Shown here one piece after another: positions 1-5,872 of a stretch of 64,000 nt of DNA (positions are counted from its first letter, which is position 1; each line of letters starts with the position of its first letter). Below the pieces are notes generated by a model. That model was given only the letters and a program-made list of their open reading frames with translations, had not been told where the DNA came from and did not search any database. The stretch comes from Bacillota bacterium (lineage in GTDB: Bacteria; Bacillota; SHA-98; UBA4971). A program made the translations under genes and the position numbers. Location of the stretch: positions 1 through 64,000 of the forward strand of contig JAAYXB010000014.1 of the NCBI GenBank assembly GCA_012516125.1, given 5' to 3'.

Positions 1-709
1 CCTGAGGGAGCAACCCCGTGCGAAACCTGGTTACCGGAGATCCACCCTTCTCGCGGCTCAGCCGGCAAAACGCAGAACTTGGTCCCCTGGTGACCAGGAT
101 CCACGCAAAGATGGTCCCCGGGGACCCAGGTTCGTCCGCCGCCTGGTCCCCAGGGGACCACCTCCACGGATGCCCGTGGACGGCTGGTCCTCAAAGGACC
201 AGGATTTGCGCGCAACTGGTCCCTGGAGGACCAACTTCGAGCGAAATCTGGTTACCAGAGACCCATCCTCCTGGCGCTCGGGCGACGAGGATGCCGGATC
301 TGGTCCTCTGGTAACCAGGCTACGCGCGAAGATGGTCCCCTGGGGATCAACTTCGCCCGTCACCTGGTCCCCACGTGACCACCTTGCGAGATCTCCAAGA
401 ACCCCTGGTCCCCAGGGGACCAGGTTTTGCGTACGGATGGTCCCCAGGGGATCAACCTCGCGAGCAACCTGGTCCCTTACGGATCACCCCCGGCGGCGGT
501 CGGGGCGCCCTGGTCACGAGAGGATCAAGACGTGTGCCAACCTGGTCCCCAAAGGACCATCTTCAGGCGAGATCTGGTCCCTGGTGCTCCACCTTGCCTG
601 GTTTCGGCGAAGGAGGGCGGCAGGGGTGGTTCCCAGAGGGCCAGATTCCACGCCGGGCTGGTCCCCAACGGACCAGGTGTACCCGCAACTTGGTCCTCGG
701 AGGACCAGC
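1..709. repeat. Helically phased array of 20-bp palindromes
   Basis: Nineteen complete 20-bp imperfect palindromes start at 27, 79, 111, 143, 184, 216, 248, 300, 332, 364, 405, 437, 469, 510, 542, 574, 626, 658 and 690. The right part of a twentieth occupies 1-14, so the array continues to the left. The best site is TGGTCCCCAGGGGACCA (406-422). In the 20-bp frame, TGGT at columns 2-5 and CA at columns 17-18 are present in all 19 complete sites, and column 16 is always C or T. Sites come in triplets at 32-bp steps, separated by 41 or 52 bp. Open frames run through on both strands only because the repeats lack stop codons. Function is unknown; a DNA-binding protein array or a string of RNA hairpins are the main options. 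Confidence 0.93.
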
Positions 710-730
710 CGCATCTCGGCTGCCGGCTTG

Positions 731-759
731 CTGACTGACTGACTGGCTGGCTGGCTGGC
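731..759. repeat. CTGA/CTGG tetranucleotide tract
   Basis: Three CTGA units are followed by four CTGG units directly after the last palindrome of the array. It is a simple-sequence tract and may mark slippage at the array edge. Confidence 0.85.
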
Positions 760-1149
760 ACATGCCCGTTTATAAACACGTATCATCATACTTGAAAGCA
801 AGTCACGGACGACATCATCAATGACAACATCATCGACGAGTTTACGGCAGCCTGTTGCGCCAGCCTGTAAACGTGCGACACCGAACACAAACCCCCGGGC
901 GGATGCATGGCACGGTGCGCCTTACTGCGCACTCATGTAGCCGCTGGCTCGTTCAAGTTTGAGGTTGGGCATCTATAGATGCTGGAGAGTATGGCCGGAT
1001 CGTATGCTGACCCGGCCCTGATCAGGCCGACCACAGGCCGGGTGAACGCCTGTCTCCTGACAGGACCATAGATGACACGCAGATGACATGCCACGCCACG
1101 TCCGCCCAAAATCTGACGCCCGACGCGGCCACCAGGGCGTACCGTTACG
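760..1149. other. Non-coding stretch between the array and the Uma2 gene
   Basis: No convincing gene is visible. There is an imperfect inverted repeat with GTTTAC at 840-845 and GTAAAC at 867-872, and a small hairpin CCTGTC-tcct-GACAGG at 1049-1064. The short minus-strand frame 973-1161 has no recognisable content. Confidence 0.5.
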
Positions 1150-1178
1150 TTGACAGATCATCAGTATCCTGGTAAAAT
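1150..1178 (+). promoter_or_regulatory. Sigma-A type promoter of the Uma2 gene
   Basis: TTGACA at 1150-1155 and TAAAAT at 1173-1178 are separated by exactly 17 bp. This is a near-consensus housekeeping promoter and would start transcription near 1185, just before the Uma2 gene. Confidence 0.8.
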
Positions 1179-1186
1179 CAGGATAC
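1164..1186. promoter_or_regulatory. Operator-like inverted repeat over the -10 box
   Basis: The perfect arms GTATCCTG (1164-1171) and CAGGATAC (1179-1186) flank a 7-bp centre that contains the -10 hexamer. A protein bound here would block the promoter. The dyad differs from the array palindromes. Confidence 0.65.
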
Positions 1187-1262
1187 CAGGAAGAGAATCA
1201 GATGAATGCTGAAACGCGGGGTGATTGTGGTGAAGGACCCGAGTCAGGAGGGGAACAGAGGA

Positions 1263-1835
1263 GTGGTGAGTAAGACAGCCCCCCAATACATCCCGCCTGA
1301 GTTGCGGCTCACTTACGAGGATTATTGCCGGATGCCATCGGGAGAACGATACGAGCTCCTGGAGGGGGACCTGAGGAAGATGACGCCGGCTCCAAGCGTT
1401 CTTCACCAGAAAGTCTCGGGAAGAATTGAGAAGGCGTTGAGACAATGGGTCGATGATCACAACCTGGGTGAGGTGTACGATGCCCCAATCGATGTGGTTC
1501 TGAGCGAGCATAATGTAGTTCAGCCCGACATCCTGTATATCTGCAAAGAGCGCCTTGGGATAATCAAGGAGGCTTATATCCAGGGCGCCCCTGATCTGGT
1601 AGTCGAGATCCTTTCGCCTTCCACCGTAGAGCTGGACCGGGTGACAAAACGAAGACTCTATGGACGCTATGGGGCTCGCGAATTCTGGATAGTGGATCCC
1701 GATAGCCGCAGTATCGAGGTTACCTCGCACAACGGCAGAGAGCTTGCCACCGTGCAGGTCTATCCGTCAGGAACAACCCTGGCAAGCCCCTTGCTGAAAG
1801 GGTTCGTGTTGGAGATAGACCGGGTCTTTTTCTAA
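1263..1835 (+). CDS. Uma2 family (DUF820) restriction-endonuclease-fold protein
   Basis: The 190-residue product matches the Uma2/DUF820 family. These are PD-(D/E)XK-fold proteins, common in cyanobacteria and some Bacillota, mostly of unknown role and presumed nucleases. Visible hallmarks are an N-terminal LTYEDYCRMP and YELLEGDL segment, then VVQPDILYI and APDLVVEILSPST, which carry the acidic residues and the glutamate of the nuclease core, and YGAREFWIVDP. GTG at 1263 is chosen because AGGAGGG (1247-1253) lies 9 bp upstream; an ATG at 1206 in the same frame is possible. It has its own promoter with an operator-like dyad and is followed 86 bp later by a Dam-type methylase. Whether the two form a functional pair is not known. 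Confidence 0.85.
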   Translation: MVSKTAPQYIPPELRLTYEDYCRMPSGERYELLEGDLRKMTPAPSVLHQKVSGRIEKALRQWVDDHNLGEVYDAPIDVVLSEHNVVQPDILYICKERLGIIKEAYIQGAPDLVVEILSPSTVELDRVTKRRLYGRYGAREFWIVDPDSRSIEVTSHNGRELATVQVYPSGTTLASPLLKGFVLEIDRVFF

Positions 1836-1921
1836 AGGTGGGCCAGCTTTGAGAGGTACATCGCTCGTCGTCCGCGACCGGACGTTCCACCTGACCTGAT
1901 GTAGGCAGGAGGTCCTGGTTC

Positions 1922-2776
1922 ATGGGTGTTGACCTGCAACTCTCTGAACCGCTCATACCCAGTAGCAATAAGAAAGGTCCAGCAAAACCCTTTGTAAAGT
2001 GGGCTGGCGGTAAGGGGCAACTGGTGGAGGACCTCGCGGCCCACTTGCCAGAGAAGTATTCCGCTTACCATGAGCCTTTCGTGGGCGGAGGTGCGCTGTT
2101 CTTCCGCCTCGCTCCGGCCACAGCATTCCTGTCGGATCTCAATGAGGAGCTCATTAACGCATATCTCGTCGTCAAGAACGACTGCGACGCGCTGATACGT
2201 AGTCTCCGGAAGCACAAGAATGAGCGGGCGTACTACTATGAGATGCGATCCCTTGACCCAGATACCCTGGACCCAGTCGAGAGGGCTTCGAGGTTTATCT
2301 ATCTTAACAAGACATGCTACAACGGGCTTTATCGAGTGAACAGGCAAGGCAAGTTCAATGTGCCCTATGGCCGATACAAGAATCCAGTCTATGCCGACGA
2401 GGCGCAACTGCGGCTTGCCAGCAAGGTCCTTGCAAACGCAGATATCAGGGTTGCCGACTTTGAAATCGTCCTTGAGCAAGCAAAGCCCGGTGACTTCGTG
2501 TATTTTGATCCGCCATACCAGCCAATAAGTGCGACAGCTAACTTCACCAGCTACACGCGAGATGCGTTTGACGAGTCTCAACAGAGGCGTCTTGCCGCTG
2601 TGTTTCGTGAGCTTGATAGGAGAAGGTGCTACTTGATGCTCAGCAACTCTGATTCGCCTCTGGTACGCGAGCTATACAGCCAGTTCAGAATCGCGACAGT
2701 GATGGCCAAGCGGTGCATCAACTGCAAAGGCGAGAGACGAGGTGCTATTCCTGAAGCCCTGGTGCTGAACTATTGA
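1922..2776 (+). CDS. Dam family DNA adenine N6-methyltransferase (D12 class)
   Basis: This 284-residue protein has the D12-class layout. The SAM-binding motif FVKWAGGKGQL is near residue 24, followed by HEPFVGGGALFF, then SDLNEELI, and the catalytic motif DPPY near residue 197. D12 enzymes transfer methyl from S-adenosylmethionine to adenine N6, most often in GATC. ATG 1922 follows AGGAGG by 9 bp. No cognate restriction gene of a known type is adjacent; only the Uma2 protein lies upstream. It could be a solitary regulatory methylase or the methylase half of an unusual restriction pair. Target specificity is inferred from the family and is not shown here. A hairpin terminator follows. Confidence 0.9.
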   Translation: MGVDLQLSEPLIPSSNKKGPAKPFVKWAGGKGQLVEDLAAHLPEKYSAYHEPFVGGGALFFRLAPATAFLSDLNEELINAYLVVKNDCDALIRSLRKHKNERAYYYEMRSLDPDTLDPVERASRFIYLNKTCYNGLYRVNRQGKFNVPYGRYKNPVYADEAQLRLASKVLANADIRVADFEIVLEQAKPGDFVYFDPPYQPISATANFTSYTRDAFDESQQRRLAAVFRELDRRRCYLMLSNSDSPLVRELYSQFRIATVMAKRCINCKGERRGAIPEALVLNY

Positions 2777-2891
2777 GAACGGGGACACTCGGTCATTGTC
2801 TTCTCGGGCCGAGGATGGTCAACTGACCTATTAAGACATGCCGTGTCGTATTAACCGAGTAATCAAGCAGGGCTGGCTCAAGAATCGCGAT

Positions 2892-2938
2892 GCCGGCGGT
2901 CTCGCAGGTAGCATCCTCCGGACTGCCGGCTTTTCTTG
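2892..2938 (+). terminator. Rho-independent terminator after the methylase gene
   Basis: GCCGGC at 2892-2897 can pair with GCCGGC at 2925-2930, with GTC/GAC extending the stem, followed by TTTTCTT. It would end transcription from the Uma2-methylase side and faces the convergent DUF1015 gene. Confidence 0.6.
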
Positions 2939-2978
2939 TCGGCACGGGGCGGGCGCAGGGGAGGCTCCCTGCGTCCTT

Positions 2979-4250
2979 TCAATCGTCCAGGTCCCACATG
3001 AGGAGACCCGCGGGTGCTTTCGGCAGGAAATAGGTCGTTTTCCGCGGAAAGAGGTAGCCCTCGCGCGCTTTCTTGAGGATTTCACTTGCAGGGATCGCTG
3101 GGGGGAAGACGGCGACTTGTATCCTGCCCGATGCTATTGCGGCGAGCTCCGCCGGGCCGTTGTGGGTGTATGCGATCTCGCATGCGGCACCCGGGACAGC
3201 TTGCCTGCGCGAGAACAAGACCGCTTCCTCGGCGATCTCGAGGTCGAGACGCCTCAGCATTTCGGGCGTGTCGCCGTCGTAGGCCAAGATCCACAGACCA
3301 GCGCGCGTCACCACCGCAAACGAGGTCTTGCCGCCCGAACACGAGATCCGGGAGCAAAGCCACGTCCACAGGCGGCGTGCGGCGTCCTCGCCGCACCCGG
3401 GCGTGAACGGCCTTGCGTCTGTGTCGATGACGTCGAAGGCCGAGAGTATCCTCTCCACGAGGTCGGCCTCCGAGCCTTCGGGCCATCCGGCGATGACCCT
3501 GTGCGTCGGGAGCACCACCACGCCGGGGTCCGAGGTGGAGACAAGGGCCGCCAGGATACGCATGTGCCTCGGGTCCCCGGTCTCCCGAGCCAATCTCTTC
3601 ATAGATTCGCACCTGTGATGGCCATCGGCGATGACGACCGGGCCCGAGCCGACGGCTTCCATGATGGCAGCCGAGGTCGCCTCGTCGCGGATGCGCCACA
3701 CCCTGAGCGCTTCCGCCGGCAAGGTCGCCGTAAGGTCCGGCCCAGACGCCGCTCGCACGCAGGCAAGCATCGACACCACCTTCCCGGAGGGGTCCTCATA
3801 GAGGCCAAGCATCGGACTCGGGAGGGCGTGGCTCGCGCGGAGAAGATTCATGCGATCCTCTCTCGCGTGGGCCATGGTTTCCTCGTGGGGCAGGACGCCC
3901 TCATTCAGGTCTAGAAGGCCCACCACCGCCGTTCGCGTGTATCTTCTGCCTTGCCATTCGAACTCGTGCTCGCACAAGTACAGGGATGGCCCCGAGTCGG
4001 CAACGAGCACGCCTTCGCGGCGCCACGTCCTCCAGAGTCGCGCGGCGTTTTCGTAGAGAGCCGGGTCCTGTCCGCCCGGCGGCGGTATGGTGAGCTCCAG
4101 GCGGACGACGTTCCACGGATGCCGTTCCGCAAGGCGCCTCCCCTCCTCAGCGTCGACGACGTCGTAAGGCGGCGCGATGACGGCACCGAGATCCGCGCCC
4201 ACCTTGCCGGGGTAATAGTAAACCGCCGTAAAAGGCATGAGCTTCGCCAT
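2979..4250 (-). CDS. DUF1015 family protein of the serine operon
   Basis: The 423-residue protein belongs to DUF1015. It shows the N-terminal VIAPPYDVVD segment and the central VVIADGHHRCE signature. The family is found near serA/serC genes in many anaerobes and its biochemical role is not settled. The Asp-Gly-His-His-Arg motif resembles the core motif of ParB/sulfiredoxin-fold proteins, a fold that includes free serine kinase; that link is my inference. ATG 4250 is preceded by AAGGAGG at 6 bp spacing, and the gene begins 2 bp after the serA stop, so it is translated from the same message. No phosphoserine phosphatase gene is in the window, which makes a serine-phosphate role worth testing. 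Confidence 0.85.
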   Translation of the reverse strand: MAKLMPFTAVYYYPGKVGADLGAVIAPPYDVVDAEEGRRLAERHPWNVVRLELTIPPPGGQDPALYENAARLWRTWRREGVLVADSGPSLYLCEHEFEWQGRRYTRTAVVGLLDLNEGVLPHEETMAHAREDRMNLLRASHALPSPMLGLYEDPSGKVVSMLACVRAASGPDLTATLPAEALRVWRIRDEATSAAIMEAVGSGPVVIADGHHRCESMKRLARETGDPRHMRILAALVSTSDPGVVVLPTHRVIAGWPEGSEADLVERILSAFDVIDTDARPFTPGCGEDAARRLWTWLCSRISCSGGKTSFAVVTRAGLWILAYDGDTPEMLRRLDLEIAEEAVLFSRRQAVPGAACEIAYTHNGPAELAAIASGRIQVAVFPPAIPASEILKKAREGYLFPRKTTYFLPKAPAGLLMWDLDD

Positions 4251-4252
4251 GG

Positions 4253-5872
4253 TCAACCTCCTTGCGCCGCCCCGGCCTGAGAATTGGGGCGTTCGAGGTA
4301 GACAGGCTTCACCGAGAGCACACCCGCGAGGCGGGCTATCTCGGTTAGCGCTTCCGGCGGGGCTGGAGAGTCTATCCCAAGGACCATGATGGCGTCCCCT
4401 CCCTTCGCCTTCCTCGCGACCTGCATCTCGGAGATGTTCACTCTGGCCTTCCCAAGCGTCGTGCCGACCATGCCGATTATGCCCGGCTGATCCACATGCG
4501 GACAGACCAACATGTATGGGGTGAAGGCCATGTCCAGCCGGTACCCGTCGATCTGAACCAATCGCGGCACCTGTCTTGCGGAGAGAACCCCCGCGACCAG
4601 CCTCGTCCCCTTGTTCGTTGAGGTTTCGACGGAGATCTCGTTCGGATTCCCGTTCCCGTCGGACACACGGATCTCGCTTATGGCAATACCCCTTTCCTTC
4701 GTGAGTATCGGGGCGTTCACCACGTTCACATCGTCCCCAAGAAGCGGAGAGAGCACGCCCTTAAGCACGGAGTTGAGCAAGGGCCGGGTGTCGAGGGAGC
4801 TCAACTTCCCTCCCCACCCCACCCGGACCGAAGCGATCATGCCTTCTGACCACTGCGACGCGAACTTGCCGAGGATCTCCGCAAGCGGGATGAACGGCGC
4901 AAGCTCGCGGAACACTTCGGCTGCCGGCACCGGGATGTTCACGGCGTTCGGCACAGGCTCGCCGCGGAGCGCCGCGAGCATGGCCTTCGCAGTCTCGAGC
5001 GCGACGTTTGTCTGTGCCTCGGTCGTAGACGCGCCGAGGTGGGGTGTTACGATGACGTTGTCGAACCCAAGGAGCGGGTGGTCCGGGGGCGGAGGCTCAG
5101 ATGTCAGCACGTCGAGCGCCACTCCGGCCACCTTCCCCGACCTGAGGCCCTCGACGAGCGCGGATTCGTCCACCACCCTGCCCCTGGAGCAGTTGACGAT
5201 GCGCACCCCTTTCTTCATCAAGGCGATCGTCTCACGCCGGATAAGGCCTATGGTCTCAGGTGTCACCGGCACGTGGAGGCTGATGAAGTCGGAGTTGGCG
5301 AATACATCCTTGGGCTCCGCCGGCACGACTCCCAAGCTGGCGGCCTTGCTCGCTGAGACACCCGGGTCGTACGCCAGGACCTTCATGCCGAGAGCGAGCG
5401 CCCGCTTCGCAACCTCGACCCCCGCGCGGCCGAGGCCGAAGATGCCGAGCACCTTGCCTCGGACCTCCGTTCCCATGAACTTCCCTCTCTCCCACCCGCC
5501 GGACTTGACGTGGGCGCAGGCCTGCGGGATGTTTCGGGCGAGGCACAAGAGGAGCGCGATCGTGTGTTCCGCGACTGCGACCGAGTTGCCACCGGGGGCG
5601 TTCACGACCACAATGCCCTTTCTCGTGGCAGCATCCACATCGATGTTGTCGACGCCGGCGCCGGCCCGTCCGATGACCTTGAGGCGCCCCGCTGCGGCTA
5701 TGCACCGGGCGGTTACCTTGGTGGCCGACCTCACCATGATCCCGTCGTACTCGGAGATCCGGTCGAGGAGCGCGGACTCGTCGAGCGGCTTTGAGACGTC
5801 CACCTGGGCTTCTGTGCGAAGAAGCTCTATTCCTTCCCTGGCTACGCCGTCAGTTACGAGTATCTTCATCAT
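4253..5872 (-). CDS. serA: D-3-phosphoglycerate dehydrogenase
   Basis: The 539-residue product oxidises 3-phosphoglycerate to 3-phosphohydroxypyruvate with NAD, the first step of serine synthesis in the cytosol. Domains in order are the substrate-binding part, the NAD-binding Rossmann part with GIFGLGRAG, the catalytic arginine region NCSRGRVVDE and catalytic histidine region TPHLGASTTEAQ, an intervening ASB domain, and a C-terminal ACT domain (from about 460) that in this family senses serine. The length fits the long ASB-ACT type. ATG 5872 overlaps the upstream stop as ATGA, so coupling to the aminotransferase is expected. Confidence 0.97.
   Translation of the reverse strand: MMKILVTDGVAREGIELLRTEAQVDVSKPLDESALLDRISEYDGIMVRSATKVTARCIAAAGRLKVIGRAGAGVDNIDVDAATRKGIVVVNAPGGNSVAVAEHTIALLLCLARNIPQACAHVKSGGWERGKFMGTEVRGKVLGIFGLGRAGVEVAKRALALGMKVLAYDPGVSASKAASLGVVPAEPKDVFANSDFISLHVPVTPETIGLIRRETIALMKKGVRIVNCSRGRVVDESALVEGLRSGKVAGVALDVLTSEPPPPDHPLLGFDNVIVTPHLGASTTEAQTNVALETAKAMLAALRGEPVPNAVNIPVPAAEVFRELAPFIPLAEILGKFASQWSEGMIASVRVGWGGKLSSLDTRPLLNSVLKGVLSPLLGDDVNVVNAPILTKERGIAISEIRVSDGNGNPNEISVETSTNKGTRLVAGVLSARQVPRLVQIDGYRLDMAFTPYMLVCPHVDQPGIIGMVGTTLGKARVNISEMQVARKAKGGDAIMVLGIDSPAPPEALTEIARLAGVLSVKPVYLERPNSQAGAAQGG

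What the first reader, a model, noticed from the sequence alone, without database searches (positions are those of the whole stretch)
79..709. Higher-order triplet organisation of 105 or 116 bp in the array
The sites fall into six triplets starting at 79, 184, 300, 405, 510 and 626, with inner steps of exactly 32 bp. Triplet periods are 105, 116, 105, 105 and 116 bp, close to 10 and 11 helical turns. The second member often ends CAAC and the third ends CACC, so members keep position-specific identity. The longer (32-bp) separators hold a decayed site-like stretch (ctggcgctcgggcgacgagg at 271; ctggtttcggcgaaggagg at 598). The array seems to have grown by triplet duplication under selection for phase.
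Basis: seen in the sequence. Interest (0 to 1): 0.8.

Follow-up and report, generated by a model that had tools for sequence, protein, structure and literature searches.

The report
Transposon-borne phased array of palindromic sites
The triplet array is real: it is the core of a small transposon-like element, scattered about 30 times in two sister bacterial species, that carries 20 or more protein-binding-type sites all on one face of the DNA helix and looks maintained by selection; its function is unknown.

Summary
The triplets are confirmed: 18 sites of 17 bp (TGGTCCCCNGGGGACCA) in six triplets, plus the end of a seventh at 28-44. The contig begins inside the array. The own genome has 36 array places with the same spacing grammar, and the sister species G004 (MAG JACIXY) has as many sites. 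The array is the core of a 1.2-1.6 kb non-autonomous element with terminal inverted repeats (window right end 951-978); related species show empty sites, consistent with a duplicated TA. Spacings (32, 41, 52, 63) fit a 10.5-bp helix (R=0.95). Between orthologs, array indels are five times rarer than in the element's ends, and all are +-1 or +-10/11 bp. Outermost site bases are 98% identical between species, the element's ends 90-92%. Hairpin arms do not covary and no frame is coding, so these are DNA binding sites. Linkers evolve faster than neutral because arrays exchange sequence between copies. Growth was by 221-bp two-triplet units, not single triplets. 'Decayed sites' in the long separators are not supported. 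Binding protein and function are unknown. Verdict: new variant of a known kind (MITE-like element).

The parts
1..978 (+). Right part of one copy of the element, cut at its left by the contig start
   Evidence: Window is C92:1-64000; left half of the orthologous element is seen in G004 L046, 920-2518
28..707 (+). Phased array: site A3 plus triplets B-G, 19 sites of 17 bp
80..160 (+). Triplet B (80, 112, 144); followed by 41-bp step
185..265 (+). Triplet C (185, 217, 249); followed by 52-bp step
301..381 (+). Triplet D (301, 333, 365); followed by 41-bp step
406..486 (+). Triplet E (406, 438, 470); followed by 41-bp step
511..591 (+). Triplet F (511, 543, 575); followed by 52-bp step
627..707 (+). 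Triplet G (627, 659, 691)
708..950 (+). Element tail shared by other copies, outside the array
951..978 (-). Right terminal inverted repeat (reversed: CTATAGATGCCCAACCTCAAACTTGAAC); candidate duplicated TA at 976-977
   Evidence: G005 homology resumes here

Best explanation
The array is the core of a non-autonomous transposable element with terminal inverted repeats (MITE-like, apparently duplicating a TA target). It carries a lattice of 21 (up to about 33) dyad-symmetric 17-bp sites spaced at whole turns of B-DNA. Shown: inverted repeats, two empty sites in related species, dispersal, conserved sites and phase, and array sequence shared across loci rather than by orthology. Inferred: a dimeric DNA-binding protein occupies the sites on one face of the helix and assembles cooperatively along the array; selection, or conversion biased to the consensus, maintains sequence and phase in resident copies; the exchange is homologous recombination or gene conversion between copies. 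Whether the lattice serves the host (nucleoid or domain organisation, local gene control) or only the element is not settled.
For: Inverted repeats and empty sites. 36 array places with one grammar. Site columns 0.88 against linkers 0.78 mean identity, outer bases 98-99% invariant. R=0.951 at 10.5 bp; 1006 of 1017 spacings within 1 bp of 32/41/52/63. Orthologs: outer site bases 98.3%, leader 90.1%, tail 92.1%, linkers 80.6%; array indels 19 per 1209 substitutions, all +-1 or +-10/11, against 35 per 451 in leader and tail. Nearest relative of array segments is the ortholog in 2 of 37 cases, of tails in 9 of 13.
Against: No binding protein and no transposase with these ends was found (searched one family only). 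Element is longer than typical MITEs. Neither empty site reads exactly one TA: G005 has TG, G002 has 7 extra bases. Phase p is only 0.01, or 0.08 if the 32-bp step is given, and spacings within a family are inherited. Both genomes are drafts.
Confidence: 0.72

Rival explanations
1. Purely selfish element: the sites serve only transposition (transposase or accessory-protein binding), and their conservation reflects recent copying from a few active copies, not a function of resident arrays.
For: The array moves inside a transposable element; close relatives live without it.
Against: Insertions orthologous in G000 and G004 keep outer site bases at 98.3% while leader and tail of the same copies fell to 90-92%. 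Biased conversion could mimic this.
Confidence: 0.25
2. RNA-level element: arrays are transcribed and work as strings of hairpins.
For: Every site can form a short hairpin; intergenic position.
Against: No compensatory change between arms: 3658 Watson-Crick pairs against 3631 expected under independence, of 5032; no Rfam match; helical spacing would not matter to RNA.
Confidence: 0.04
3. Assembly artefact or neutral repeat: regular spacing is just inherited, and the mosaics are chimeric joins of a draft assembly.
For: Many array places in G000 end at contig ends; spacings are inherited within a family.
Against: Indels are five times rarer in arrays than in the same elements' ends, with a restricted size spectrum. 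Outer site bases stay fixed while centre bases vary like linkers. Nearest relatives lean towards the same genome, 126 of 218 against 107 expected. The relic L039 array assembles without shuffling.
Confidence: 0.1

Closest known systems
Correia repeat enclosed elements (CREE) of Neisseria and other TA-duplicating bacterial MITEs
   Same: Short non-autonomous element with inverted repeats, TA target, intergenic, many copies, carrying a host-protein site: CREE can bind IHF (PMC2649163, abstract)
   Different: About 1.2-1.6 kb instead of roughly 0.1-0.2 kb (size of CREE from own knowledge); 21 or more phased sites instead of one; arrays exchange sequence between copies; different sequence
REP / REPIN / BIME elements
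   Same: Dispersed intergenic palindromes in many copies (PMC3116915, PMC3733652)
   Different: Sites are DNA dyads in arrays of 21 with fixed spacing inside a larger TIR element; hairpin arms do not covary
Plasmid iterons and centromere (parC-type) arrays (own knowledge)
   Same: Direct arrays of binding sites at near-integral helical spacing, suited to cooperative protein assembly
   Different: Chromosomal, about 30 copies; no match in plasmid or phage collections; no partition genes among the neighbours examined

Membership tests
Bacterial MITE (TA-duplicating, Tc1/mariner-IS630 type) | Terminal inverted repeats | tested here: met
   Related ends in many copies, both ends in L085 and L046
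Bacterial MITE (TA-duplicating, Tc1/mariner-IS630 type) | Precise insertion with duplicated TA | tested here: inconclusive
   Empty sites in G005 and G002 fit TA, but G005 reads TG and G002 has 7 extra bases
Bacterial MITE (TA-duplicating, Tc1/mariner-IS630 type) | No transposase gene inside; many copies | tested here: met
   No conserved frame through the array; 36 places in own genome
Bacterial MITE (TA-duplicating, Tc1/mariner-IS630 type) | Short, usually under about 600 bp | tested here: not met
   1201 bp (L085) and 1599 bp (L046); hence called MITE-like, not filed as a MITE
Bacterial MITE (TA-duplicating, Tc1/mariner-IS630 type) | Autonomous partner with the same ends | tested here: inconclusive
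   Only a DDE_3 fragment with a stop in G000, none in G004; other transposase families not searched
REP/REPIN | Hairpin-forming palindrome with compensatory change | tested here: not met
   No covariation
Phased protein-binding array | Sites in helical phase with spacing kept | tested here: met
Phased protein-binding array | A cognate protein binds the site | not testable with these tools
   Inferred from site conservation and phase only
Structured RNA family | Match to a known covariance model | tested here: not met
   No Rfam match in window 1-5000

The most novel reading that the evidence does not exclude
A transposable element has spread a chromosome-organising lattice: about 30 arrays per genome, each with 21 or more phased dyad sites, are bound by a dedicated protein that bridges distant loci. 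Bridging keeps sites and phase under selection and brings arrays together often enough to swap their linkers.
Probability: 0.2. Interest if true: 0.85.

Novelty: new variant of a known kind. Interest (0 to 1): 0.6.

Why it matters
Known bacterial MITEs are mostly short and carry at most a few host-protein sites. Here an element carries a helically phased lattice whose sites, phase and length stay intact after insertion while the linkers are traded between copies. It offers a natural system for asking whether dispersed site arrays organise a chromosome and whether protein-bound repeats recombine more often. The relative G001, which keeps only deleted relics, is a natural control.

Tried and rejected
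Coding repeat: an open frame spans the window array, but nearly all other copies carry stops in every frame and there is no codon-position signal. RNA hairpins: no covariation, no Rfam match. AvaII-type GGWCC restriction target: conserved members such as TGGTTACCAGAGACCCA break GGWCC while the outer TGG/CCA stays fixed. Decayed sites in long separators: not supported. Plasmid, phage or viral origin: no matches. IS630 partner: none intact. Base-level empty sites for L022 and L012 could not be aligned, although their flanks lie close together in G002, G003 and G005. Paper searches found no matching element; the library is open-access only.

Full report
WHAT IS THERE. The window has 18 sites in six triplets with 32-bp inner steps, plus a 19th site at 28-44 that ends a truncated triplet. 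The window begins at base 1 of contig C92, so the array is cut by the assembly. The site is a 17-bp odd palindrome, TGGTCCCCNGGGGACCA. Over 629 aligned instances the outermost bases (positions 1, 2, 16, 17) are 98-99% invariant and the centre varies.

DISPERSED FAMILY. The same array occurs at 36 places in the own genome, many of them at contig ends, so the true number is perhaps 25-36. The common complete form has seven triplets (A-G, 21 sites) with spacings 33,32,52 | 32,32,41 | 32,32,52 | 32,32,41 | 32,32,41 | 33,32,52 | 32,32. The sister species G004 has as many exact sites (146 against 145). G004 is very probably the public MAG JACIXY: 3596 bp of one locus are identical. The other genera of the family have none. 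There is no match in plasmids, phages or viral contigs. Of the 145 exact palindromes in G000, 144 lie in array loci.

A TRANSPOSABLE ELEMENT. Arrays are flanked by a shared leader (about 200-400 bp) and tail (about 130-430 bp) ending in inverted repeats: left YTATAGATAGCCAACTCAGGAGTTGAGG, right (reversed) CTATAGATGCCCAACCTCAAACTTGAAC. L085 is complete at 1201 bp and L046 at 1599 bp. The window's right end is 951-978. At this locus G005 has the uninterrupted site...CATTGACC TG GATGCTGG, against ...CACTGACC TA at the left junction and ...GGGCATCTA TA GATGCTGG at the window's right junction. At the L085 locus G002 is empty, with flanks 92-93% identical and 7 extra bases. The data fit a duplicated TA, but neither empty site reads exactly one TA. 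Many insertions are orthologous in G000 and G004, so they predate that split. No intact IS630-type transposase was found in four genomes of the genus. A scan for the ends found pairs about 112 bp apart, a smaller related MITE.

GROWTH. Triplets A and C, and B and D, are most alike (0.20, 0.17), so the duplicated unit is A-B, 221 bp or about 21 helical turns. Longer copies add triplet pairs (L017 and L061 about nine triplets, L102 about eleven). A divergent relic (L039, contig C30) reads most simply as A B E F G plus one more triplet, without C-D. It is orthologous in G004 and, with an internal deletion, in G001. G001 also keeps a right-end fragment on C13 and, on C36, a leader and tail joined by a single site. 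Arrays were therefore probably lost in G001 and kept in G000 and G004.

DNA SITES, NOT HAIRPINS OR GENES. Arms do not covary: 3658 Watson-Crick pairs against 3631 expected under independence. No Rfam family matches and no frame is conserved. Position classes 1, 2 and 3 are real but reside in the linkers.

PHASE. The window sites give a Rayleigh R of 0.951 at 10.5 bp. Random separator lengths reach this in 1% of trials, or 8% if the 32-bp step is taken as given. Of 1017 spacings in both genomes, 1006 are within 1 bp of 32, 41, 52 or 63. These spacings are inherited, so the stronger evidence is evolutionary. Between orthologs the array shows 19 indels per 1209 substitutions; leader and tail show 35 per 451 (p=3e-8). 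All 19 array indels are +-1 or +-10/11 bp, while the ends show many sizes. Only three array indels exceed 1 bp, so the size argument rests on few events.

SELECTION AND EXCHANGE. Between orthologs the outermost site bases are 98.3% identical, leader 90.1%, tail 92.1%, flank 92.6% and array linkers only 80.6% (p=3e-17 for outer bases against the ends, p=9e-52 for linkers). Linkers faster than neutral DNA are explained by exchange between copies. The closest relative of a two-triplet array segment is its ortholog in 2 of 37 cases, and of tails in 9 of 13; leaders gave 5 of 12, partly because some orthologous leaders lie on separate loci. Nearest relatives change along each array and lean to the same genome. 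The isolated relic L039, too diverged to exchange, evolves like its flanks, and shows no clear excess of site conservation. Fixed outer bases despite exchange imply selection on resident arrays or conversion biased to the consensus; these were not separated.

MECHANISM. I infer that a dimeric protein binds each dyad and assembles on one helix face. It is not identified, so function (host or element) remains open. Confidence: transposable element 0.9; phased binding lattice 0.75; exchange between copies 0.85; host-level function about 0.3.

CAVEATS. Both genomes are drafts and many arrays end at contig ends. Ortholog indel counts are modest. Only one transposase family was searched. Neighbouring genes are varied (Uma2, D12 methylase, PHP, DUF401, aldo-keto reductase, deacetylase) and give no functional hint.

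Noticed in passing
L064, L068, L077, L098, L101 and other uncultured Bacteroides contigs (BRZ_SF bin20 and relatives): Unrelated dispersed intergenic arrays of GGTCC/GGACC palindromes with a 22-bp period (about two helical turns), about five units each; same half-site, different genus and grammar.
   Followed up: partly
L012:3186-3309; L014:2234-2435; tens of copies in G001: A second MITE-like family of about 125-200 bp with dozens of copies in G001, G002 and G003.
   Followed up: no
G000 C54:28993-29104, C45:31976-32087, C16:4225-4336, C96:21947-22059: About 112-bp elements bounded by ends like those of the array element; one forms the left end of the L024 copy.
   Followed up: partly
window 729-759: CTGA/CTGG tetranucleotide repeat just after the array, of different length and pattern in other copies.
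   Followed up: no
L172 (G001:C36), about 793-1140: Element with leader and tail joined through a single site: array apparently collapsed by recombination between sites.
   Followed up: partly
L115:943-1058 (G005): 23-bp tandem repeats (CACCCATTCCGGCCGAATTAGAT) near the Uma2 gene in G005.
   Followed up: no
L051, L058, L087, L107 (Frankia): Four Frankia genomes share AGTCAATCGGTTGACTCCTGGAGCTTAACCCTC upstream of a single TGGTCC...GGACCA palindrome.
   Followed up: no
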